A DNA stretch of 42,568 nt. Origin: a virus. The first letter of the stretch is position 1, and every line of letters begins with the position of its first letter. The stretch spans positions 1 to 42,568 of IMG/VR virus record IMGVR_UViG_3300036766_000613, one strand, 5' to 3'. This document shows positions 5,202 through 40,499 of this stretch, piece by piece. The notes under the pieces are model-generated. The model worked only from the letters and a program-made list of their open reading frames with translations, was not told the origin of the DNA and did no database searches. The position numbers and the translations under genes are program-made.

Positions 5202-6083
5202 ATGAACACGTTAAAATTAACACAAATAGTGCCAGACCCAAATCAACCAAGAAAGTATTTTGCAGTTGAAAAAATGGCATCCTTAAAGGATAGCATAAAA
5301 AGAGTTGGCATGAAGCAACCGATAGTTGTGTATCAGAAAGGGGATAAATACTTTATCACGGACGGTGAGAGACGTTATAGAGTTGCGAAAGAATTAGGTT
5401 TTAAGGAAATTGCGGTGGTTATAGAGCCGGCAAAAAACGATTTTGACCGTCTTATAGAACAGTTCCATATTCAAGAACAGCATGAGTCATGGAGTCCGAC
5501 TGAAAAAGCGATGGCTATAATGGACATATCGGAGATGTCAAAGAAGTCAATGAAAGAGGTCTGTGAATTATTGTCTGTGAATGAAAGAATGATTCGGTAT
5601 TACATAGCATTTGGTAAGCTGCACAACAAGGCGAAATTCATAGAATACCAATGCAGTCTTGAGAACGCTGAAAAGATAAACGAAGTAAAGACATTCGTAA
5701 GGAAAATAAAAGAGCAAGTATTGACAGAACCATTCACGAAAGCAGAGGAAAATACTCTTGAAAAAGTGCTGATTGACAGAATCCACGAAAAACAAATAAC
5801 TGAGCGCGGGGATTATTCTAGGATAAAAGACTTGTTCCGTACCGAACCAAAACTCATTGACAGGTTCATGAAGGACAACAAATTTGATGTCAATACGGCA
5901 TTTGTAAGCACTAAAGCGGCTGGGGCACGGTTTATCAGAAATATGATAACATCATCTAACTATGTAATATCAAATGGTATGGGATTTCTTAAGGACCCAA
6001 ATGTGAAACTTGCGGATATGGATATTCAGACATTGAAACGTTGCAAAAAAATCTGTGATGAAGTTGTAAATCTTGTTGAATAA
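5202..6083 (+). CDS. parB: ParB-family DNA-binding CTPase-like protein
   Basis: The 293-residue protein begins with a ParB N-terminal domain: PDPNQPRKYF (11-20), then DGERRYRVAKELG (54-66) with the GERR phosphate/CTP motif. The third box is altered (HIQEQ in place of the usual ENIQR). A helix-turn-helix follows at about 113-140 (MKEVCELLSVNERMIRYYIA), then a long helical C-terminal region. This is the layout of chromosomal and plasmid ParB that binds parS and slides as a clamp. No ParA is seen in the window. Two parS-like sequences lie 1.4 kb downstream and a third at 31540. The role could be segregation, DNA condensation or gene control. Confidence 0.85.
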   Translation: MNTLKLTQIVPDPNQPRKYFAVEKMASLKDSIKRVGMKQPIVVYQKGDKYFITDGERRYRVAKELGFKEIAVVIEPAKNDFDRLIEQFHIQEQHESWSPTEKAMAIMDISEMSKKSMKEVCELLSVNERMIRYYIAFGKLHNKAKFIEYQCSLENAEKINEVKTFVRKIKEQVLTEPFTKAEENTLEKVLIDRIHEKQITERGDYSRIKDLFRTEPKLIDRFMKDNKFDVNTAFVSTKAAGARFIRNMITSSNYVISNGMGFLKDPNVKLADMDIQTLKRCKKICDEVVNLVE

Positions 6084-7718: not shown

Positions 7719-8205
7719 AACAATTTTAGCTGACCCTCCTTGGAAATATGGTCAAGCTTGGGGACATGGAGCAGGAATACATTATCCTTTAATGAAGTTA
7801 GAAGATATTTGTAATCTTAAAGTTCCTTCTGCTAAAAATTCTCATTTGTACTTATGGTGTCCAAATGGAATGTTGCGTGAAGGTTTAACTGTAATGAAAT
7901 GTTGGGGCTTTGAATATAAAACTTGTATTACTTGGGTAAAACATAGGTCAATCTTTGGTTATTACTTCAAAGGACAAACAGAGCAGTTATTGTTTGGAGT
8001 AAAAGGAAAACTCGCTCCGCTTGATAGAAAACAAACTACTCTAATAAATGCTAAAATAAGAAAGCACTCACAAAAACCAAATGAAGCTTATGAAGTAATA
8101 GAAAAAATTTCCCCTATGCCAAGATTAGAATTATTTGCAAGATGTAAAAGAACAAATTGGCATACTTGGGGAAACGAAATTAAAAATGATATAGAAATAA
8201 AATGA
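7705..8205 (+). CDS. MT-A70-family DNA N6-adenine methyltransferase
   Basis: The 166-residue protein starts KTILADPPWKYG, with the DPPW catalytic motif at residues 10-13, followed by HYPLMKLEDICNL and LYLWCPNGMLREG, the usual MT-A70 order, and ends with RLELFARCKRTNWHTWGNE, which carries the SAM-site Leu-Phe-Ala-Arg. Members methylate adenine at N6, and in phages they often protect DNA from host restriction. It overlaps the deaminase end by 14 bases and the next gene by ATGA, so all three are coupled. Confidence 0.88.
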   Translation: MKKYKTILADPPWKYGQAWGHGAGIHYPLMKLEDICNLKVPSAKNSHLYLWCPNGMLREGLTVMKCWGFEYKTCITWVKHRSIFGYYFKGQTEQLLFGVKGKLAPLDRKQTTLINAKIRKHSQKPNEAYEVIEKISPMPRLELFARCKRTNWHTWGNEIKNDIEIK

Positions 8206-9020
8206 ATATAAATAAATTCTATAAACAAGTTGTTTGCAAAGATATTCTTTCACAGAATCCTGAAGTAAATAAACGTACCGACACGCTGACATATTCACTT
8301 CCCGGAGTGACGTTTCAGACCGACTTGAAAAAGGAGGGGTTTCCGCTGCTCTCACTGCGGTCGCTTCCGTTCTCATTCGTATCGGAGATGATGTGGTTCC
8401 TGTCTGGGTCAAGTAATATAGATTGGCTCAGCAAGCACACGAAGATATGGAATTTCTTTGCAGAGAGTAATGGAATTGTGACGAGTGCCTATGGATTTCG
8501 CTGGAAACATAGATTCGGTTTTGACCAGTTGGAAACAGTGTTGAATAAACTTAAGGAAGACCCATCAACAAGACATGGAGTAATTATGATGTGGCATCCA
8601 AATGAAGATTTGCTTATCCGTCAAAAAAATATCCCATGTCCATATACATTTACATTAAATATAATCGGTGGCAGACTTCATTTGCATTTAATTATTCGGT
8701 CAAATGATATGGTGCTTGGCTTCCCGACAGATGTGGCCGGGTTCGCATTATTGACTCATATACTAGCACAAGAATTGAAAGTAGAGGTTGGAATACTCAC
8801 GGTGTCAATTTCAAATGCGCACATTTATGATAATCAAACAGATGCGGTAGTTGAGATGCTTAATAGGACTGATAGTTTTTTTCCAATTATTTTTGAACTG
8901 CCCAATGACACATATAATAGGGCTTGTAAACTAGATGATACTTTAATAAAAGAAATAAAAAAGGGATTTACAAATTACACTCCACATGTTGCAATAAAAA
9001 ATATACCTATTGCTTTATAA
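8202..9020 (+). CDS. Thymidylate-synthase-family enzyme with dCMP-type active site
   Basis: The 272-residue protein aligns with E. coli ThyA with matching numbers around the active site: Cys146 nucleophile (IPCPYTF), Arg166-Ser167-Asp169 (RSNDMVLG), His207 and Tyr209. Position 177, Asn in dUMP enzymes (PFNIA), is Asp here (PTDVA). Asp occupies this place in T4 dCMP hydroxymethylase, and the Asn-to-Asp change in ThyA is known to favour dCMP. His147 is replaced by Pro. So it probably makes 5-methyl- or 5-hydroxymethyl-dCMP rather than dTMP. No matching kinase is seen. The start overlaps the MT-A70 gene by ATGA. GC is high (about 55%) near 8280-8400 and low afterwards. Confidence 0.85.
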   Translation: MNINKFYKQVVCKDILSQNPEVNKRTDTLTYSLPGVTFQTDLKKEGFPLLSLRSLPFSFVSEMMWFLSGSSNIDWLSKHTKIWNFFAESNGIVTSAYGFRWKHRFGFDQLETVLNKLKEDPSTRHGVIMMWHPNEDLLIRQKNIPCPYTFTLNIIGGRLHLHLIIRSNDMVLGFPTDVAGFALLTHILAQELKVEVGILTVSISNAHIYDNQTDAVVEMLNRTDSFFPIIFELPNDTYNRACKLDDTLIKEIKKGFTNYTPHVAIKNIPIAL

Positions 9021-28751: not shown

Positions 28752-29810
28752 TTAGGAAGCCCCTGCTAGCTGCCCTTGTAACCTACATGCCGTAGCACAG
28801 AAGTTACCTGCATAAATCAAGTAACCAACCTTTGTAAGCTGGTCAACTGGACTCATCATTTTTCTAAACTGAAAACCTCTCGTTGACTTAACATTTCCGG
28901 GTACTCCACTTGGAACAGCATCAGATGTTTTCTTGAAGTTAGCTGTCATGATATTTTCATCTTGATAGTTAAATCCAACGAAACCGAATCCTTTACTATT
29001 AACAAGGAAGAACTTACCGCTTGGGACTTGTTCGTCCTTTGCAATAGGCATTCCACGAAAAGCCAAATAAACGAAACCTTGCTGTGCTCCCAAACCCGGA
29101 GTAGCTGGTACTCCTCCCCAAGCATTCATTCTAGGATAACCTGAGGTTGAAAAGTTTGCTTTAACAGTAGGAGTCAAAAGAGACTCATATGTTGACCAAA
29201 TTGACTTGGTTGTGAAAGCGAGGTCTGGACTATCTACACCAATTGTTACAGCATCACTAGCTGTAGCAAGTTTAGCAAGAGTTAAAGTTCCTGTTGCGGC
29301 AAGATAATATCCTGACCAAACTGGATAAGTTGCACGTGCTAGACCTCCGTAAGAAGCAAATAATGTTGAATCACTTGCTGCATTATTAAGAGAATCCCAA
29401 TCATTACCTGTTCCGTTACCGGTATACAAGTTTTGAGCCATAAGATTCATAAGAGATTGGCCTTGTGAATCAAACTCTGTATCAAGAAGATTAACAATTT
29501 GTTCATCTCCCATATTTACAGTTGTTTCTGCAATAGCAACTACAACTGGTTTATTGGCAGCTTTCAAATTGAATTCTGCTTGCACACGAACATTCTGGCG
29601 GTCTGTATCTAGTTTGTCAGCAATTCCCATGTTACCACCGTTTGTGGTGTCTTGGTACTTGATAGCAAACTTATAGGAGGTACCACTTGTCCACTCCTTT
29701 GGTGTTTGAAGAAAAGTCATAAGACCCGGTGTACCAGTGGTAACTTGGTCAAAAACTTTCTTCAAGATGTACTCACGAGTTGTCGTGGTTACTGCTTGGT
29801 TAAAAATCAT
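28752..29810 (-). CDS. Major capsid protein
   Basis: The 352-residue protein begins with a helical arm (MIFNQAVTTTTREYILKKVF), then beta and helix blocks (GTSYKFAIKYQDTTNGGNMG, QAEFNLKAANKPVVVAIAET), 'EQIVNLLDTEFDSQGQSLMN', 'ATGTLTLAKLATA' and the C-terminal RGFQFRKMMSP. Size, the long N-arm and the adjacent scaffold-like and portal genes identify it as the HK97-type capsid subunit. Assignment rests mainly on position and overall pattern. The scaffold-like gene is three bases upstream. Confidence 0.75.
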   Translation of the reverse strand: MIFNQAVTTTTREYILKKVFDQVTTGTPGLMTFLQTPKEWTSGTSYKFAIKYQDTTNGGNMGIADKLDTDRQNVRVQAEFNLKAANKPVVVAIAETTVNMGDEQIVNLLDTEFDSQGQSLMNLMAQNLYTGNGTGNDWDSLNNAASDSTLFASYGGLARATYPVWSGYYLAATGTLTLAKLATASDAVTIGVDSPDLAFTTKSIWSTYESLLTPTVKANFSTSGYPRMNAWGGVPATPGLGAQQGFVYLAFRGMPIAKDEQVPSGKFFLVNSKGFGFVGFNYQDENIMTANFKKTSDAVPSGVPGNVKSTRGFQFRKMMSPVDQLTKVGYLIYAGNFCATACRLQGQLAGAS

Positions 29811-30620: not shown

Positions 30621-30746
30621 TTAAAGTCCTTTCTTTTTCGCATAACTGTACGCTATTGCTAGTTTCTGTTTTTGTGGACGATTCTCATTAGCCATAATAT
30701 GCATCTTACGGGATATGAACTTTTCTTTTTCACTTTGCTTTTTCAT
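30621..30746 (-). CDS. Small basic protein overlapping the portal gene end (41 aa)
   Basis: MKKQSEKEKFISRKMHIMAN continues ENRPQKQKLAIAYSYAKKKG and L. It overlaps the portal stop by 17 bases. The motif 'RPQKQKLAIAYSYA' matches a small conserved protein found beside portals in many environmental phages (usually K-S-R-K-Q-A-I-A-I-A-L-S). Function unknown, possibly an RNA- or DNA-associated virion part. Confidence 0.65.
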   Translation of the reverse strand: MKKQSEKEKFISRKMHIMANENRPQKQKLAIAYSYAKKKGL

Positions 30747-32787
30747 TACCTTTATTTTTAGCTGCTATCTCTGCTAACGACTGCGACTTTTCAGCCATTG
30801 TTTGTCCATGTTCTTGTCCTTGTTTTTTGAGTCCAAATTCACTCTTCTTACTTTCATTTTCTGCAATCTTTTCAGCTATTAAAATAGCAGGGTCAGCTTT
30901 AATCTCTATTTGAGCAAGTAATTGTTCTTGGGCATCGGGTGGTAAATCAGCGTAATTTATTGTAACATTTGGTGGTTTCTTTTCAGTCTGTGGAGGTTGT
31001 AATTTAGCAATTTCTTCTGGTGTAAGTCCAACCGCTACAACTGGATTTATTTTGAAAGCTATGGCATTTTTAGCAAGGTCCTTAGCATTATCATAATTCT
31101 CTCTTTCTAAATAATCAGTAAGTCCTAAAGCTCCTTTTTCAAAATCATTTTGAGCTTGCTCAAACTTAAACTCATCATCTACTGGCAAACTCTTACCAGC
31201 TATAATCTTTACTTCAGAACCAGTCTCAAAATCATCTTGTATAAGCTCTATAACCTCTCTGGCTCCTTCTTTTCCCATCCACTTAGCATAATGATACTCA
31301 GTGTATCGTGTCTTAGCCATCTGCATTCCCCAATCAAATATCTCCTTAGCAACATAATCCCCAACTTGAATAAGTTCATTCAAACGAAGATATGACTGCT
31401 GAATAAGTGCTAATCGTCCGGCTTTTGTTTCTTGACCCTCACGTTCACCTCTAAAAGCAGAAGAAGCAGCCATGATATTGTCAATCTCAGAACGAGAATC
31501 AATCATGTCATCAAAAACCATCTGTGGAAGTCCATTTGCTGTTTCACGTGTAACGCCATCTTTGACACCTTTACCCCAAATTATTCCACGTGTTTCCCAA
31601 CGAATTCTTTGAGCATCAGATTTACCCATAACTGAAGCATCAACCTTTACAATACCGTTGACTAGCTCACAGTTTTCGTCAATGTCCATTTTTCGCTTAT
31701 CTATTCCCTTCTGCAATTGAGCAGAAAGGGTAATCATATCAGTCCTACCTATTGGAGTATTCTCATTATTGAAAATTGTAGCAATTATGTATGGCTTTCT
31801 TGGGTTGTCAAAGTAATTGAAATAATACGACTTATATTTCTGGTCTTGACTCAGTGAAGTCGGCTCTCCTTCTGCTGGTGCAATAGGAGGTTGTTCACCT
31901 TCTACTGATTCAACGTTGGGAGAAGCCGCTACTTTTCTTTGGTCTTGTTCAAGTTTTGCCCGTTGTAACAACTGCCTACGAGCATCACCTTCTAAACCCT
32001 TATCTCCGGTCAACTGTGATTCCTCTTCTTCTGTTATCAAGATACCGTCCCAGTCCCAATATGGGTTCTTAATCGTATCTAAAATTATAGTGTCCAACTT
32101 AAAAATAACATATTCATTGTTAATCCAAGCTTCCTTGTATTTTACATCTGGATTCTTTATGTAAAGATTCTTCTCCCCTTCATCACCAACAAAACCATAT
32201 CTTTCCATTAATTCATCTTTCTTCTTAGGAAAACGTTCTATAACAGCACAAAGATTGTCCTTTATTTCCTCAATTGCAAACTCTGAGTCCTGTTCTTTAC
32301 GGGCATATTTAGCCACTCTTACTTTTCTTGGGTCTACTGCACGATAGTCAAAATCATTTATAATTGGATTCCAAAATGCCTTAATAACCATCAAACGAGC
32401 AAAATACAAATTCCTATAAGCCATTCGGGTTGTCTCTTTAACATTCAAATCAAGATATTTCTTTCTAAAAAAAGATTCAAGCTTACGTGCAAACTCTTGT
32501 GCTGTCTCACCATCTCTACTTGGTAAAATGTTTACACCGGGTGGATTAGCTATAAGTGAATTAATAACAGATTCCATATTCACAAAAATTCTGTTTGCTT
32601 GAACAGTGTATTTTAATCTTGGTGCAGGAATATGTTGTAACCAATCTGCTTTATTGGCGTATATTGCTGTATTTTGTTTATAAGTTTGTTCAACTATTTC
32701 CCAGAGTTCTTTAGAAGAATCCCAACGATTCTCAACAAGTTGAGCTTTTGCTGTATCATCTAAAGTTGTTATATCAATTTTACTCAT
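30730..32787 (-). CDS. Portal protein
   Basis: The 685-residue protein includes NRIFVNMESVINSLIANPPG, 'YRAVDPRKVRVAKYA', 'IATIFNNENTPIGRTDMITL', 'KRKMDIDENCELVNGIVKVD' and 'EREGQETKAGRLALIQQSYL', the core order of tailed-phage portals of this size. A Gln/Lys-rich helical tail ends it. It forms the 12-subunit ring for packaging and ejection. A terminator-like hairpin lies only 8 bases before the ATG, so expression may depend on read-through. A parS-like sequence falls inside the gene at 31540-31555. Confidence 0.85.
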   Translation of the reverse strand: MSKIDITTLDDTAKAQLVENRWDSSKELWEIVEQTYKQNTAIYANKADWLQHIPAPRLKYTVQANRIFVNMESVINSLIANPPGVNILPSRDGETAQEFARKLESFFRKKYLDLNVKETTRMAYRNLYFARLMVIKAFWNPIINDFDYRAVDPRKVRVAKYARKEQDSEFAIEEIKDNLCAVIERFPKKKDELMERYGFVGDEGEKNLYIKNPDVKYKEAWINNEYVIFKLDTIILDTIKNPYWDWDGILITEEEESQLTGDKGLEGDARRQLLQRAKLEQDQRKVAASPNVESVEGEQPPIAPAEGEPTSLSQDQKYKSYYFNYFDNPRKPYIIATIFNNENTPIGRTDMITLSAQLQKGIDKRKMDIDENCELVNGIVKVDASVMGKSDAQRIRWETRGIIWGKGVKDGVTRETANGLPQMVFDDMIDSRSEIDNIMAASSAFRGEREGQETKAGRLALIQQSYLRLNELIQVGDYVAKEIFDWGMQMAKTRYTEYHYAKWMGKEGAREVIELIQDDFETGSEVKIIAGKSLPVDDEFKFEQAQNDFEKGALGLTDYLERENYDNAKDLAKNAIAFKINPVVAVGLTPEEIAKLQPPQTEKKPPNVTINYADLPPDAQEQLLAQIEIKADPAILIAEKIAENESKKSEFGLKKQGQEHGQTMAEKSQSLAEIAAKNKGNEKAK
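31540..31555. promoter_or_regulatory. Third parS-like site, inside the portal gene
   Basis: TGTTTCACGTGTAACG differs from the parS consensus at two of 16 positions. It lies in the coding sequence of the portal gene, far from parB, so it may be a distal nucleation site or chance. The single-site evidence is weaker than at 7456-7501. Confidence 0.45.
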
Positions 32788-32931: not shown

Positions 32932-33156
32932 TTAATTGGTATTAGTAAAGTTGACTGTTGATAAATATAACACATCTGCTCTTGTAATTGTCTTCAAAAA
33001 CCCTTTATTATCAAAGTGAAGTGTTACCGCGGCTCCTTTTTGTTCAAACACTTTCTTCTCTACCAGAAGATTAAAAATATCATAGTACCTCTGAAATTCC
33101 AAGAAGAGTTTTGCATCATTTGGGAGCATATATACTTGTACTTGTTCTTCATTCAT
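32932..33156 (-). CDS. Small hypothetical protein downstream of terminase (74 aa)
   Basis: MNEEQVQVYMLPNDAKLFLE with 'FQRYYDIFNLLVEKKVFEQK' and a beta tail. The ATG at 33156 overlaps the terminase end by 8 bases. Further upstream ATGs would run deeper into the terminase gene. Small proteins of this kind often follow terL in environmental phages; function unknown. Confidence 0.6.
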   Translation of the reverse strand: MNEEQVQVYMLPNDAKLFLEFQRYYDIFNLLVEKKVFEQKGAAVTLHFDNKGFLKTITRADVLYLSTVNFTNTN

Positions 33157-34717
33157 TGTTTTCCATAAATGCTTTAGTGATATCATAAACATTATCCGCA
33201 CCCAAAACTGACAGCAAATCTGATTTTATAACTTGTCCATAAAATACTCCAGCACCACTGCCCTGCATTGCGAGATATGAATACAAATCCGCAAAAACAT
33301 AGTGGTCCTCGCCTGTTGTACTTGCCCAGATGTACCTCTCAATGCCCTTGTTGTTGACCACCTTCTCACGTCTCAATGTTTCATAATGTTTGATATACAA
33401 TTGAAACTCAGCATCAGTCGCAAGTCCTATCAAATGTCTTGCTTCAACCATATCAGTTAAATGTCGGTCAAGGATTCTGTCTCTATGTGAATATACAATT
33501 CCTTTCTTATCACCTTCTCCCCACCACACAATTGTCTGTGGATTGTTTGCATTCTCCATGAAGAAAGACATCTGCATAAATGGATATTTATCCACAATAT
33601 ATTTTGCAAGCGTATTATCAGGCATCGCATCTATCACTCCAGCTGTTGGTTTCCAAAATTTTATAAGGTCATCTATCTCATCTGGATTTCTAAGTCGTCC
33701 TATTTTTAGTAAACCCTTCTCAGAACGAACAACATAATGCTTAATGTTGCCCACATCAATACCAAGAAATATATATTGACCAACTAATGACTTTGGTGTC
33801 CAAAGGTCTAGAATCGTCGTTCTGGACACACTCAAATCACCCGGACTATATGTCTTACCAAGTACAAAGTTATTAAAATATGCCGGGTCTCCTTGACTGT
33901 CCTCTATTAACTCTTCAGCACTAATCCAAGCACACATCAAATGGGATATGTGATAGCCAGATATTTTACTTCCGGGGTTCTGTGCTACCCAATCACCTCT
34001 TCTTCTAACATTGTCATCTATTGATTTCTTACAAGACCGACAAATATAACACTTCTTCTCCATGTCTAAACTATCAGGCCAAATAAGAAAATGTTTATCT
34101 TTGCAATGAGGACAAGTTATTATCCATTCTTTCTGGTCTGACTTCTGCCATGCTAAGTCCAACTCATCTCGCTCGGTTCCGGGGTTACTGAAGAGCCATC
34201 TACCTTTATACTGGGAAGCCTTAGTACGAGACCGATAAGTTTCAAGAGCCAACTGGTCGGACCGAGAAACCTCATCATGCACAAGTAAATCTGCAGTAGT
34301 AGAAATCGCAGCGGTTTTGGAAACTGTTCCTTTACAGAAAAGGAAACGGTCATTAATTTCTTTTCTTTCAATTGAATCAGTGTCCATTCCTTCAAATTCA
34401 TGTTTGTTTGCTTGAATTATTTTGTTAAGTTTTGAGGACACGAACTCTGAGGTGTCAGAATCAGTGGGGAAAGTGTAGATAACATTGAACCGCAAATACT
34501 TGATGGCAAAGAGAACTTTGAGGATAAAACTGATGGACTTACCAACCTGAGCACAAGCCATACACACAATGTTAGGACTAAAATCAGTAAGTATATCAAT
34601 GAGAAAAGGCCTATCTTTGAAATCAAAAGCTTCACCCTTTTCTGAAACGATACCTTCTGACGTAAGCCATTCAAGAATACTATAATACTGTTTTTCATTT
34701 TTGTTTGACATCTTCAT
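33149..34717 (-). CDS. terL: Large terminase subunit, GpA-like
   Basis: The 522 residues show a Walker A-like CAQVGKS (55-61), Walker B LLVHDE (144-149), a zinc cluster (Cys202, 205, 223, 226 and 229) typical of lambda GpA-type terminases, and nuclease acidic residues Asp321 (GIDVG), Asp363 (VIDAMPD) and Asp471 or Asp477 (GEDHYVFADLYSY). It drives ATP-powered DNA packaging and cuts genome ends. The start overlaps the groEL stop by 23 bases; a second ATG two codons later is equally possible. Confidence 0.92.
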   Translation of the reverse strand: MKMSNKNEKQYYSILEWLTSEGIVSEKGEAFDFKDRPFLIDILTDFSPNIVCMACAQVGKSISFILKVLFAIKYLRFNVIYTFPTDSDTSEFVSSKLNKIIQANKHEFEGMDTDSIERKEINDRFLFCKGTVSKTAAISTTADLLVHDEVSRSDQLALETYRSRTKASQYKGRWLFSNPGTERDELDLAWQKSDQKEWIITCPHCKDKHFLIWPDSLDMEKKCYICRSCKKSIDDNVRRRGDWVAQNPGSKISGYHISHLMCAWISAEELIEDSQGDPAYFNNFVLGKTYSPGDLSVSRTTILDLWTPKSLVGQYIFLGIDVGNIKHYVVRSEKGLLKIGRLRNPDEIDDLIKFWKPTAGVIDAMPDNTLAKYIVDKYPFMQMSFFMENANNPQTIVWWGEGDKKGIVYSHRDRILDRHLTDMVEARHLIGLATDAEFQLYIKHYETLRREKVVNNKGIERYIWASTTGEDHYVFADLYSYLAMQGSGAGVFYGQVIKSDLLSVLGADNVYDITKAFMENNE

Positions 34718-36260
34718 CTATTATTACGATAGCTGTTTCAATACTAACTAATGATGATGTAATTGCGACTGCAGATTCCAATGCAAGACGAAGAACTTTA
34801 TATGGGTCAATGATGCCTGCCTCAAACATATCCACTAATTCTTTTGTCATAAAGTTAACCCCGTAATTTGAATTTAACAACGGTTTATTTGCTTCTTGAA
34901 CCATTCCAAGAACTTTGTACCATTCCATTCCAGCGTTTTCAGCCATTTGTTTTATTGGAGCAAAGAGCATGTCCCTAAATAAAGGTTCTTTAATTTGTAA
35001 ATAAGCCAAAGCCACACCACCACCAGCCACGATACCCTCTTGTAAAGCCGCTTGGGTTGAAGCAATTGCATTGTTGAACTTATATTTCTTGGCATTAAAT
35101 TCTGTATCAGTATAAGCTCCAACTCTAATAACACCAATACCACCAGTCAAACGAGCCAATCTTTCACTTAAAATCATCTTCTCATATTCACTAATTGAAT
35201 CAGTAATTTCACTCTTCAATACTTCTATCCGAGTATTCAACACATTCTCATCTGATTTACCACCAATTATAATTGTACTATCTTTAGTGACTATTACCTT
35301 CTCTGCTCTACCGCATAACTTGACATCAGCTTCTTCTAATTTCATACCCATTTCTTCTGATATAACCGTGGCCCCAGTTAATGCCGCCATATCAAATAAA
35401 AAATCTCTAGCCCTTGATGCAGAATAAGGATTTGGTATACAAGCAATGTCTGCTATCTTTTGTTGATGATTAGCCGCAAGAGTTGCAAGTGCAACACCAT
35501 CTATCCCATCAGCTATAAATAAAATATCGTGTCCGGTTCCGATAGTATTCAAAAGATTCAAAACTTGCGGATTAGTGCTTATCTTTCTATCAACCAAGAC
35601 GATATATACATCCTCTAATACGCAGCTTTGTGCTTTGAAGTCATTAATAAACCAAGGAGAAATTAGACCTTTATCAATCTTAGCACCTTTGACCACCTCC
35701 TTGAAGTAACCGAGCTTAGGACCTTTCTCAACTGTTATCACGCCATTGATGCCAACGTCCTTGATTATTTCAGCGATTATCTTTGCTATTTCAGGGTCAA
35801 GGGACGATATAGTCGCAATCTGCTCTATCTCTTCTTCTGTCACATCACGCTTTATTTTAGATAATTCTCCAAGAATCTCGGTAAGTCCCTTTTCCAGTCG
35901 CTCTTTAACTTCTCTAATTCTTGACGAATCGTTAAATATCTCTCTAAATGCTGCTTCAACAAGGGTCTGGGTAAGGATAGTAGTCGTTGCAGTTCCATCT
36001 CCTCCTTCTTGCGAAGTTCTAAGCGCTGCCTTACGTAACTTTTGTAATCCAAGTTGCTCATAGTGGTCTTTGAACTTAAGATTTTTTAATATAGTAACAC
36101 CATCGTCACACTCTATCGGGTCCAGTCCCGGATATTCTATAATCGCTGACATGCCTACAACACCAAGAGTTGGCCTCACTGCGTTAGCCGCTTTGTCAAT
36201 ACCAGCTTTTATTCTAAGTCGTGCCTCATTACTAAATGTTATTTCTTTATTTGGTTCCAT
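34695..36260 (-). CDS. groEL: Phage GroEL chaperonin with altered ATPase residue
   Basis: The 521-residue protein keeps GroEL landmarks: GGDGTATTTIL (86-96, with Asp88 for Asp87), 'CDDGVTI' with Asp53, SPWFINDF, TLTGATVISEEMGM-like sequence, 'EGIVAGGGVALAYL' (408-421) and GIIDPYKV with Asp485. The residue matching E. coli Asp398, which activates water for ATP hydrolysis, is Asn397 (YKFNNAIA). TLGPKG is TLGVVG. The C-terminal GGM tail is absent. It is the first gene upstream of terL and 2 bases after groES, so it likely folds virion proteins. Slow or lost ATP turnover is predicted. Confidence 0.95.
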   Translation of the reverse strand: MEPNKEITFSNEARLRIKAGIDKAANAVRPTLGVVGMSAIIEYPGLDPIECDDGVTILKNLKFKDHYEQLGLQKLRKAALRTSQEGGDGTATTTILTQTLVEAAFREIFNDSSRIREVKERLEKGLTEILGELSKIKRDVTEEEIEQIATISSLDPEIAKIIAEIIKDVGINGVITVEKGPKLGYFKEVVKGAKIDKGLISPWFINDFKAQSCVLEDVYIVLVDRKISTNPQVLNLLNTIGTGHDILFIADGIDGVALATLAANHQQKIADIACIPNPYSASRARDFLFDMAALTGATVISEEMGMKLEEADVKLCGRAEKVIVTKDSTIIIGGKSDENVLNTRIEVLKSEITDSISEYEKMILSERLARLTGGIGVIRVGAYTDTEFNAKKYKFNNAIASTQAALQEGIVAGGGVALAYLQIKEPLFRDMLFAPIKQMAENAGMEWYKVLGMVQEANKPLLNSNYGVNFMTKELVDMFEAGIIDPYKVLRLALESAVAITSSLVSIETAIVIIDEDVKQK

Positions 36261-36262
36261 AA

Positions 36263-36532
36263 TTATAATACTGCTAATACATCTTTTCTATTAATAAACT
36301 TTCCTTTTTTACCTTCAAATATCTCTATCTCGTGAGTATCTGGAGAATACTTTGCAAAAATAACCGTATCACCTATTTCCACACGTCTATCACCCATAAA
36401 CAATGGAGCAGTTGATAAGCCGACAACTTTCGCTTTGTATATAAACTCATCTTGCACATTAACTGTCTTAAAACCTTCTGTTTTCTTTTCTTCTAACTTT
36501 TCCACTAAGATATATTCATTTGATATATTCAT
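36263..36532 (-). CDS. groES: GroES co-chaperonin with variant mobile loop
   Basis: The 89 residues end with EIGDTVIFAKYSPDTHEIEI and FINRKDVLAVL, the Cpn10 roof and base pattern. The mobile-loop IVL triplet (GGIVLTG) of ordinary GroES is not conserved; the aligned region reads EGFKTVNVQDE. So the loop may fit the phage GroEL rather than the host's. It is upstream of groEL with a 2-base gap, and its start overlaps the preceding gene stop by ATGA. Confidence 0.88.
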   Translation of the reverse strand: MNISNEYILVEKLEEKKTEGFKTVNVQDEFIYKAKVVGLSTAPLFMGDRRVEIGDTVIFAKYSPDTHEIEIFEGKKGKFINRKDVLAVL

Positions 36533-36969
36533 TGTCTTACTTTACCATAAAGCATATTAAATCCAGTTTCAAAAGGTTGAATTATATCCCTAAAATGATT
36601 ACCTCTATCAAGCGCAACAAATCTAGACTTCTGCCAAAATCCATCTCGCTGCTTATCGGTAATAAAACGAATACACCAATGACCTTTGAAACATTTTGTC
36701 TTGTAAAAAGCGATTAATTGATTAGATGACCAGTCGTCCTCAATTTGTTTAATCGCTATACTCTTGAAATCTTTTTTACACTCTTCACACCAGAAGTCGG
36801 TTAAAACTATATCTTTATTATCTCGTATGAGCTCATTTCTCTCTTCTATAGCTTTTATTCTGTTCTGGTGATATGTTCTATCATTTGACCGCTTTTCTTG
36901 CCCCTCAATCAATTCTTGAATGTGGTAATGGTCTTCAATTAAAGGATGTGGAGTTTGCTCAATTTTCAT
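36529..36969 (-). CDS. Hypothetical protein with zinc-ribbon-like motif (146 aa)
   Basis: An N-terminal helical part (DRTYHQNRIKAIEERNELIR) is followed by WCEECKKDFK and KCFKGHWC, giving a Cys4-type metal site, and a basic C-terminal half. Small phage proteins with this pattern are widespread and uncharacterised. It is coupled by ATGA to groES and to the small gene upstream. Confidence 0.6.
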   Translation of the reverse strand: MKIEQTPHPLIEDHYHIQELIEGQEKRSNDRTYHQNRIKAIEERNELIRDNKDIVLTDFWCEECKKDFKSIAIKQIEDDWSSNQLIAFYKTKCFKGHWCIRFITDKQRDGFWQKSRFVALDRGNHFRDIIQPFETGFNMLYGKVRQ

Positions 36970-39659: not shown

Positions 39660-40499
39660 TTAGTTATTTAGATTTATAAATGGAACACTGGAACCGGGAA
39701 TCATTTGCATAGGAAGAATTCCATTCCAACGTTCTATTGCTTTTAATTTCACATAATCTTCACCACCTTGAGCCGCAAGAGATTGAGATTGAATTCTTTG
39801 CGCTTCAGCTGTAGCTTTAGCAGTCTCAATTGTTTGCTGAGCTTCAAATTTAATTTGTTCTAATTTATTCTTTGCTGCTTCTGCATTTTGAACTGCTGTT
39901 ACTTTTGCCTCAATAGCTTCTGTAAACGACTTTGAGAATTCAAAATTAGTGATATTTACTCTTTCTATGGTAACAAACTGAGTTGAAAGTCTTTCGTTGA
40001 TGACAATCACAACTTTATCTGTGAACTCAGCACGCTTAGTAACAAGCTCTTCTGCTGTGAATTGAGATGCTACCGCTTTAACCGTGTCTCTCACTGCTGG
40101 TCTAATAATTCTCTCTTCATATTGGTCCACTGTTCCATATTGCTGATAGATTGTCTGTACTTTTGATGGGTCAAGTCTGTAATTGAGCACAATTGCAATC
40201 TTAACGTCCTGTAAATCTTTTGAAGCAGAATACAATGGGTCTTCTAATTCATACTTAACCGTTTTAGTCTGCACATTCATTACATTGACTTTTTCTATAA
40301 TTGGAAGTTTGAAATAAAGTCCTTGCTCTACTAATCCAACAACAGCACCAAATCTTGTTTTAACTCCACGTTCTCCGGCATTGATAGTCCCCATAGAACC
40401 AAATAACACAATTAAAATAATTAAAATAATTAAAATAATAATTGCGTGCCTTACAACTTTCCAAACATCTAATTGACCATCTGTTTTTGTATATTTCAT
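39660..40499 (-). CDS. SPFH/prohibitin-family membrane protein
   Basis: The 279-residue protein has an N-terminal membrane helix (about 19-36, AIIILIILIILIVLFG), the SPFH start INAGERGVKTRFG, then 'DLQDVKIAIVLNYRLDPSKV', 'RPAVRDTVKAVASQFTAEEL', 'VTIERVNITNFEFSKSFTEA' and an Ala/Glu-rich coiled coil (KLEQIKFEAQQTIETAKATA). Prohibitins and HflK/C form large membrane rings and hold proteases. A phage copy could reshape membranes or protect phage proteins. It heads the SPFH, prepilin-like, HAD and Fic run. Confidence 0.92.
   Translation of the reverse strand: MKYTKTDGQLDVWKVVRHAIIILIILIILIVLFGSMGTINAGERGVKTRFGAVVGLVEQGLYFKLPIIEKVNVMNVQTKTVKYELEDPLYSASKDLQDVKIAIVLNYRLDPSKVQTIYQQYGTVDQYEERIIRPAVRDTVKAVASQFTAEELVTKRAEFTDKVVIVINERLSTQFVTIERVNITNFEFSKSFTEAIEAKVTAVQNAEAAKNKLEQIKFEAQQTIETAKATAEAQRIQSQSLAAQGGEDYVKLKAIERWNGILPMQMIPGSSVPFINLNN

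What the first reader, a model, noticed from the sequence alone, without database searches (positions are those of the whole stretch)
34695..36260. Phage GroEL with Asn in place of catalytic Asp398
The motif that reads VEDALHAT in E. coli is FNNAIAST here, anchored by AGGGVAL downstream, so the Asp398 position is Asn397. Asp53 and Asp88 (E. coli Asp52 and Asp87) remain. In E. coli, mutating Asp398 nearly stops ATP hydrolysis but not binding. A chaperonin with slow turnover could hold large capsid or fibre folding intermediates for longer, or work as a one-shot folding cage.
Basis: partly seen in the sequence, partly recalled or inferred. Interest (0 to 1): 0.75.

Follow-up and report, generated by a model that had tools for sequence, protein, structure and literature searches.

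The report
Phage chaperonin with rebuilt ATPase site
A family of uncultured phages carries its own protein-folding cage (a GroEL/GroES pair) in which a key ATP-cleaving residue has been replaced, and the replacement is strictly conserved across dozens of related phages, so it is not a sequencing error and the cage probably runs on an altered, perhaps much slower, ATP clock.

Summary
The ORF at 34695-36260 (-) is a group I chaperonin with Asn397 at the E. coli GroEL Asp398 position. All 43 distinct relatives in its clade (down to 49% pairwise identity) have Asn. It is written with both Asn codons (21 AAT, 22 AAC), with zero amino-acid changes against at least 12 codon changes on the tree. The Asn is therefore selected, not an error. 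Elsewhere Asp is nearly universal: 80/80 other viral contigs, 20/20 other GenBank phages, 78/79 cellular GroELs. Sister phages show the order: Lys51->Asp came first (L084 and L202 keep Asp398); Asp398->Asn plus Thr90->Ala followed in this clade. A second sister clade keeps Asp398 but has Asp87->Ser, Thr89->Arg and Ser151->Glu. A GroES gene sits beside GroEL, and the remaining ATP ligands are kept. Best explanation: a chaperonin that still binds ATP and its lid but hydrolyses slowly. Main rival: catalysis rewired around the new Asp. No activity data exist, so slow turnover remains an inference. New variant of a known kind.

The parts
34695..36260 (-). groEL-like group I chaperonin, 521 aa
   Evidence: AlphaFold2 model with 59 sequences mean pLDDT 90.9, pTM 0.83; matches GroEL/Hsp60 structures Z about 40-43 over about 505 residues
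35070..35072 (-). codon of Asn397 (AAT) at the E. coli Asp398 position, on the helix equivalent to helix M (residues 385-408)
36105..36107 (-). codon of Asp52 at the E. coli Lys51 position
   Evidence: Asp in 40/40 clade members and in both sister lineages
35988..35990 (-). codon of Ala91 at the E. coli Thr90 position
   Evidence: Ala in 40/40 clade members, Thr in the sister lineages
36102..36104 (-). codon of Asp53 (E. coli Asp52), kept; probable remaining catalytic base
   Evidence: 40/40
35997..35999 (-). codon of Asp88 (E. coli Asp87, Mg2+ ligand), kept in this clade
   Evidence: 40/40
34872..34925 (-). hypervariable segment, residues about 446-463, where E. coli GroEL has the inter-ring residues 452-464
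36263..36532 (-). groES-like co-chaperonin, 89 aa, directly upstream of groEL
   Evidence: Cpn10 26.8 bits against a cut-off of 21.1; PHROG co-chaperonin GroES; conserved mobile-loop motif in relatives
36529..36969 (-). conserved 146-aa protein of unknown function upstream of groES (WCxxCK motif); marks the module's border
33149..34717 (-). terminase large subunit, directly downstream and overlapping the groEL end
   Evidence: next to groEL in the relatives
30730..32787 (-). portal protein
28752..29810 (-). major head protein

Best explanation
A phage-encoded GroEL/GroES pair whose ATPase has been re-tuned rather than destroyed. ATP still binds: the nucleotide ligands other than positions 51, 90 and 398 are kept. 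Helix M still closes over the site and the phage's own GroES still caps the ring. The nucleophilic water, held in E. coli between Asp52 and Asp398, now faces only one carboxylate of that pair, Asp53. Asn397 can hydrogen-bond to Asp53 and the water like a permanently protonated Asp398, so hydrolysis is slow and the capped cage lives long. Shown: conservation, selection, order of the changes, kept ligands, linked GroES gene. Inferred: slow hydrolysis, long encapsulation, and a role in folding head or tail proteins.
For: Asn in 43/43 with both codons, 0 amino-acid against at least 12 codon changes. E. coli positions 52, 87, 88, 89, 415 and 495 are invariant, 30 and 91 nearly so. The groES gene is next to groEL and keeps a conserved mobile-loop motif. 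Asn397 is on the helix M equivalent in a confident model. Literature: the attacking water lies between D52 and D398 (PMC10723157). D398A gives about 2% ATPase, binds ATP and holds GroES or HSP10 in stable football complexes; HSP60 D398A still folds rhodanese (PMC3813556; PMC5855711). Calculations find that a protonated Asp dyad switches hydrolysis off and that the D52 equivalent is the better base (PMC12557358). A sister clade independently changed another core ATPase residue, Asp87->Ser, which suggests that standard fast cycling is not needed in this lineage.
Against: No ATPase or folding data exist for any member. The effect of Asn, as opposed to Ala, at 398 is not documented in the papers I could search (none). 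Lys51->Asp, fixed before Asp398->Asn, could supply a new base or cation ligand and restore activity. The inter-ring segment is shortened and variable, so ring number, and with it the release mechanism, is unknown.
Confidence: 0.5

Rival explanations
1. Rewired catalysis: Asp at position 51, next to Asp52, takes over the role of the lost Asp398, either as a second carboxylate near the water or by binding an extra cation (changed K+ or Mg2+ use). ATP turnover is near normal.
For: Lys51->Asp is in every member of the lineage that covers the site and precedes Asp398->Asn: L084 and L202 have Asp51 with Asp398. It is strictly conserved (40/40, GAC and GAT). The sister clade shows a similar exchange of acids, losing Asp87 and gaining Glu151, and in simulations of E. 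coli GroEL Asp87 contacts Ser151 and Asp398 in the closed state (PMC3053311).
Against: In E. coli the Lys51 side chain is described as an ATP phosphate contact (PMC12954864; weakly in PMC3053311), so a carboxylate there would be repelled unless a cation bridges it. No coordinates were available to measure distances. Asp51 together with Asp398 also exists, so it need not be a compensation.
Confidence: 0.27
2. The ATPase cycle has been given up: the protein is an ATP-bound or ATP-independent holding cage, and the active site is drifting.
For: Different core residues changed in two sister clades. Phage EL's chaperonin is proposed to work without encapsulation (PMC7185714).
Against: The site is not drifting: 0 amino-acid changes at positions 51, 52, 87, 88, 89, 90 and 398 against 10-19 codon changes each. 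A groES-like gene precedes groEL in nearly all members whose upstream DNA is held.
Confidence: 0.15
3. The Asn is structural only (for example for helix M packing or GroES coupling) and has little effect on the rate.
For: A chromosomal GroEL paralogue with otherwise canonical residues, L153, also carries Asn398, so Asn is tolerated in another setting.
Against: Asp398 is nearly universal in other chaperonins, and Asp398->Ala costs about 98% of the activity in E. coli (PMC3813556).
Confidence: 0.07
4. Sequencing or assembly error, or a one-off mutation.
For: A single transition (GAT to AAT) would do it.
Against: 43/43 distinct sequences from many metagenome contigs share it with mixed codons.
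Confidence: 0.01

Closest known systems
Canonical group I chaperonin GroEL (E. coli) and HSP60
   Same: Same fold over the whole length (Z about 40, about 35% identity); GroES partner gene; kept residues Thr30, Gly32, Asp52, Asp87, Thr89, Asp495
   Different: Asn for Asp398, Asp for Lys51, Ala for Thr90; shortened, variable inter-ring segment; no GGM tail
Engineered GroEL/HSP60 D398A (slow-hydrolysis mutant)
   Same: Loss of the same carboxylate; the mutant binds ATP and its lid (PMC3813556, PMC5855711)
   Different: Natural Asn, fixed by selection, with Lys51->Asp and Thr90->Ala; activity untested
Phage EL, OBP and AR9 chaperonins (giant phages)
   Same: Phage-encoded chaperonins of the same fold; AR9 GroEL is a structural match; possible single-ring behaviour
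   Different: EL keeps the catalytic Asp (Asp412), has about 8-fold higher ATPase than GroEL and does not respond to E. coli GroES (PMC7185714); this clade has Asn and its own groES
Other marine, Vibrio, Flavobacterium and Bacteroides phage GroELs
   Same: Phage-encoded, some with groES
   Different: All sampled keep Asp398 and nearly all Lys51
Chlamydial GroEL2 and GroEL3 paralogues
   Same: Natural GroEL variants diverged in regions for ATP binding and hydrolysis (PMC1892554)
   Different: Cellular paralogues, not a phage head-module chaperonin; the residues named there are others

Membership tests
Group I chaperonin (Cpn60/GroEL) | Cpn60 sequence profile and three-domain fold | tested here: met
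   Pfam 131.5 bits against 34.3; model pLDDT 90.9, Z about 40 to GroEL/Hsp60
Group I chaperonin (Cpn60/GroEL) | Partner Cpn10/GroES | tested here: met
   Adjacent gene above the Pfam cut-off; found in nearly all relatives whose upstream DNA is held
Group I chaperonin (Cpn60/GroEL) | Seven-fold ring assembly with GroES capping | not testable with these tools
   Needs purified protein
Canonical GroEL ATPase | Asp52/Asp398 catalytic pair | tested here: not met
   Asp52 kept, Asp398 is Asn in 43/43
Canonical GroEL ATPase | Mg2+ ligand Asp87 and nucleotide ligands Thr30, Gly32, Thr89, Asp495 | tested here: met
Canonical GroEL ATPase | Measured ATP hydrolysis | not testable with these tools
   No biochemical data
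Canonical double-ring GroEL | Conserved inter-ring contact residues (Arg452, Glu461, Ser463, Val464; Glu434 region) | tested here: not met
   About 12 residues missing near E. coli 425-440 and the 450-470 region variable in length and sequence; this does not show which ring form it takes
Giant-phage EL-type chaperonin | Kept catalytic Asp (EL Asp412) | tested here: not met
   Asn at that position in 43/43; a groES-like gene is adjacent as well

The most novel reading that the evidence does not exclude
A natural phage chaperonin lineage took its ATP clock apart stepwise: first Lys51->Asp, then in one clade Asp398->Asn with Thr90->Ala, in another Asp87->Ser with Thr89->Arg and Ser151->Glu. It now works as a long-lived, lid-closed folding cage, or uses relocated acids for a new hydrolysis mechanism, and either state is kept by selection.
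Probability: 0.35. Interest if true: 0.78.

Novelty: new variant of a known kind. Interest (0 to 1): 0.6.

Why it matters
The Asp398 carboxylate is taken as near-essential for the GroEL clock. Here a whole phage clade lives without it, with the intermediate states preserved in relatives and nearly 40 sister contigs of the same head-gene family lacking the chaperonin at that site. That makes it a natural experiment on whether fast ATP turnover is needed for chaperonin function, and it may offer slow-cycling cages that nature has already optimised.

Tried and rejected
Sequencing error: rejected. Neutral decay of the site: rejected by codon counts. More relatives of the two intermediates by single-protein scans: none beyond those in hand. 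First AlphaFold2 run with 16 close sequences was poor (pLDDT 70); repeated with 59 sequences. The original papers on D398A, on D52A/D398A and on the ADP-AlF3 complex are not in the library, so their numbers are taken from citing papers. No paper on GroEL D398N was found, but only openly licensed papers were searched. In some searches my script joined the GroES sequence to the end of the window GroEL; corrected from then on, with the same residues read at every site. Host: one relative (L100) lies on a contig of a Candidatus Scalindua MAG, which may be a binning artefact, so no host is claimed.

Full report
OBSERVATION. The - strand ORF 34695-36260 encodes a 521-aa group I chaperonin. Against enterobacterial GroEL its FNNAIAST is VEDALHAT, so Asn397 (codon AAT, 35070-35072) is at Asp398, with Asp53 and Asp88 at Asp52 and Asp87. 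The reading is correct.

TWO LINKED CHANGES WERE MISSED. At E. coli Lys51 this protein has Asp52 (the motif reads DDG instead of KDG), and at Thr90 it has Ala91. Both positions lie in the nucleotide pocket. Lys51 is described as a phosphate contact (PMC12954864; weak hydrogen bond in PMC3053311), and Thr90 is listed among the residues bound to the gamma-phosphate (PMC8440773).

IT IS CONSERVED AND SELECTED. Scans of viral contigs with the protein and with an alignment of its relatives, plus one genome-collection hit, gave 43 distinct clade sequences covering the site, the window included. All have Asn, written 21 times AAT and 22 times AAC. Asp51 and Ala90 are each 40/40. On the clade tree position 398 needs 0 amino-acid changes and at least 12 codon changes; position 51 needs 0 and 10, position 90 needs 0 and 19; the neighbouring position 397 needs 11 amino-acid changes and the median column 5. 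Pairwise identity in the clade goes down to 49%. This excludes error and drift.

IT IS RARE ELSEWHERE. Asp398 is present in all 20 other GenBank phage GroELs sampled, in 80/80 further viral contigs (the search patterns there required the usual residues at 51-53 and 87-90 but not at 398) and in 78/79 cellular GroELs (mostly Actinomycetota). The cellular exception, L153 from an uncultured bacterium, keeps Lys51 and Thr90, and its genome has a second, canonical GroEL, so Asp398->Asn seems to have arisen more than once.

ORDER OF EVENTS. The terminase of a sister (L084) led to more relatives. L084 and L202 have Asp51 but keep Thr90 and Asp398. A second clade (L225, L234, L248, L250) keeps Asp51 and Asp398 but reads AGSGRTT for AGDGTTT, that is Asp87->Ser and Thr89->Arg, with Ser151->Glu. 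In the tree the Asp51 lineage is one group (support 99), the Asn398 clade one group (100) and the Ser87 clade one group (100) (SH-aLRT values, quick search, branching among L202 and the two clades unresolved). So Lys51->Asp came once and early, and two clades then altered different core residues of the ATPase.

CONTEXT. In the window the gene order is 146-aa protein, groES, groEL, terminase large subunit, portal, then the head protein. The order 146-aa protein, groES, groEL, terminase recurs in the clade contigs long enough to show it. The groES-like gene passes the Pfam cut-off (26.8 against 21.1) and has a conserved mobile-loop motif in relatives. Short groES-like ORFs also precede groEL in L084, L202 and the Ser87 clade (by position and eye alignment). 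Nearly 40 sister contigs share the terminase, and mostly the 146-aa protein, portal and head genes, but have no detectable chaperonin there; in L182, for instance, the 146-aa gene match ends 56 bases before the terminase. The chaperonin module therefore looks gained or lost as a unit.

STRUCTURE. With 59 sequences AlphaFold2 gives pLDDT 90.9 and pTM 0.83; Asn397 lies on the 385-408 helix, the equivalent of helix M. The fold matches GroEL and Hsp60 over about 505 residues (Z about 40). The region of E. coli residues 425-470, which carries inter-ring contacts (452, 461, 463 and 464 are the SR-1 positions named in PMC3813556), is shortened and variable in the whole lineage. A single-ring or weakly paired form is possible but untested.

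MECHANISM. In GroEL the attacking water is placed between Asp52 and Asp398 (PMC10723157). D398A keeps ATP and lid binding with about 2% ATPase, and HSP60 D398A folds rhodanese inside stable football complexes (PMC3813556; PMC5855711). Calculations find the dyad inactive when it shares a proton, and the Asp52 equivalent the better base (PMC12557358). An Asn at 398 resembles a permanently protonated Asp (inference), so the most likely result is slow hydrolysis with normal closure. The serious rival is that Asp51 compensates; its early fixation is equally compatible with that. Which is right needs an ATPase measurement.

VERDICT. By fold and partner this is a group I chaperonin; it fails the catalytic-pair test for a canonical GroEL ATPase. 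New variant of a known kind.

Noticed in passing
L248:2600-4129, also L225, L234, L250: Sister phage chaperonins with the Mg2+ ligand Asp87 replaced by Ser, Thr89 by Arg and Ser151 by Glu (AGSGRTT motif) while Asp398 is kept; arguably stranger than the finding itself.
   Followed up: partly
L153:8001-9560: Chromosomal GroEL paralogue of an uncultured bacterium (MAG Dive96_bin1.51) with Asn398 but otherwise canonical residues; its genome has a second GroEL with Asp398.
   Followed up: partly
L180-L215 (except L202), L217-L219, L221, L249: Related phages with the same terminase, and mostly the same 146-aa protein, portal and head genes, but no groES-groEL module in the interval; a natural comparison for chaperonin need.
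   Followed up: partly
L251:126-1709: More distant terminase-linked GroEL with Lys51->Ile, Ser151->Ala and Gly415->Ala, Asp398 kept.
   Followed up: no
window 36529-36969: 146-aa protein with a WCxxCK motif found upstream of groES in these phages; no Pfam or PHROG match.
   Followed up: no
window 39660-40499: Band 7/SPFH-domain protein (Pfam E=1e-33; PHROG 'lipoprotein') near the head genes.
   Followed up: no
L100 (Candidatus Scalindua MAG contig): Clade member on a 40.6-kb contig binned with Candidatus Scalindua; the cellular GroELs of that MAG keep Asp398, and two have Ala at Ser151.
   Followed up: partly
window 8202-9020 and 5202-6083: Thymidylate synthase and ParB-like genes on the + strand, opposite to the head and tail genes.
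   Followed up: no
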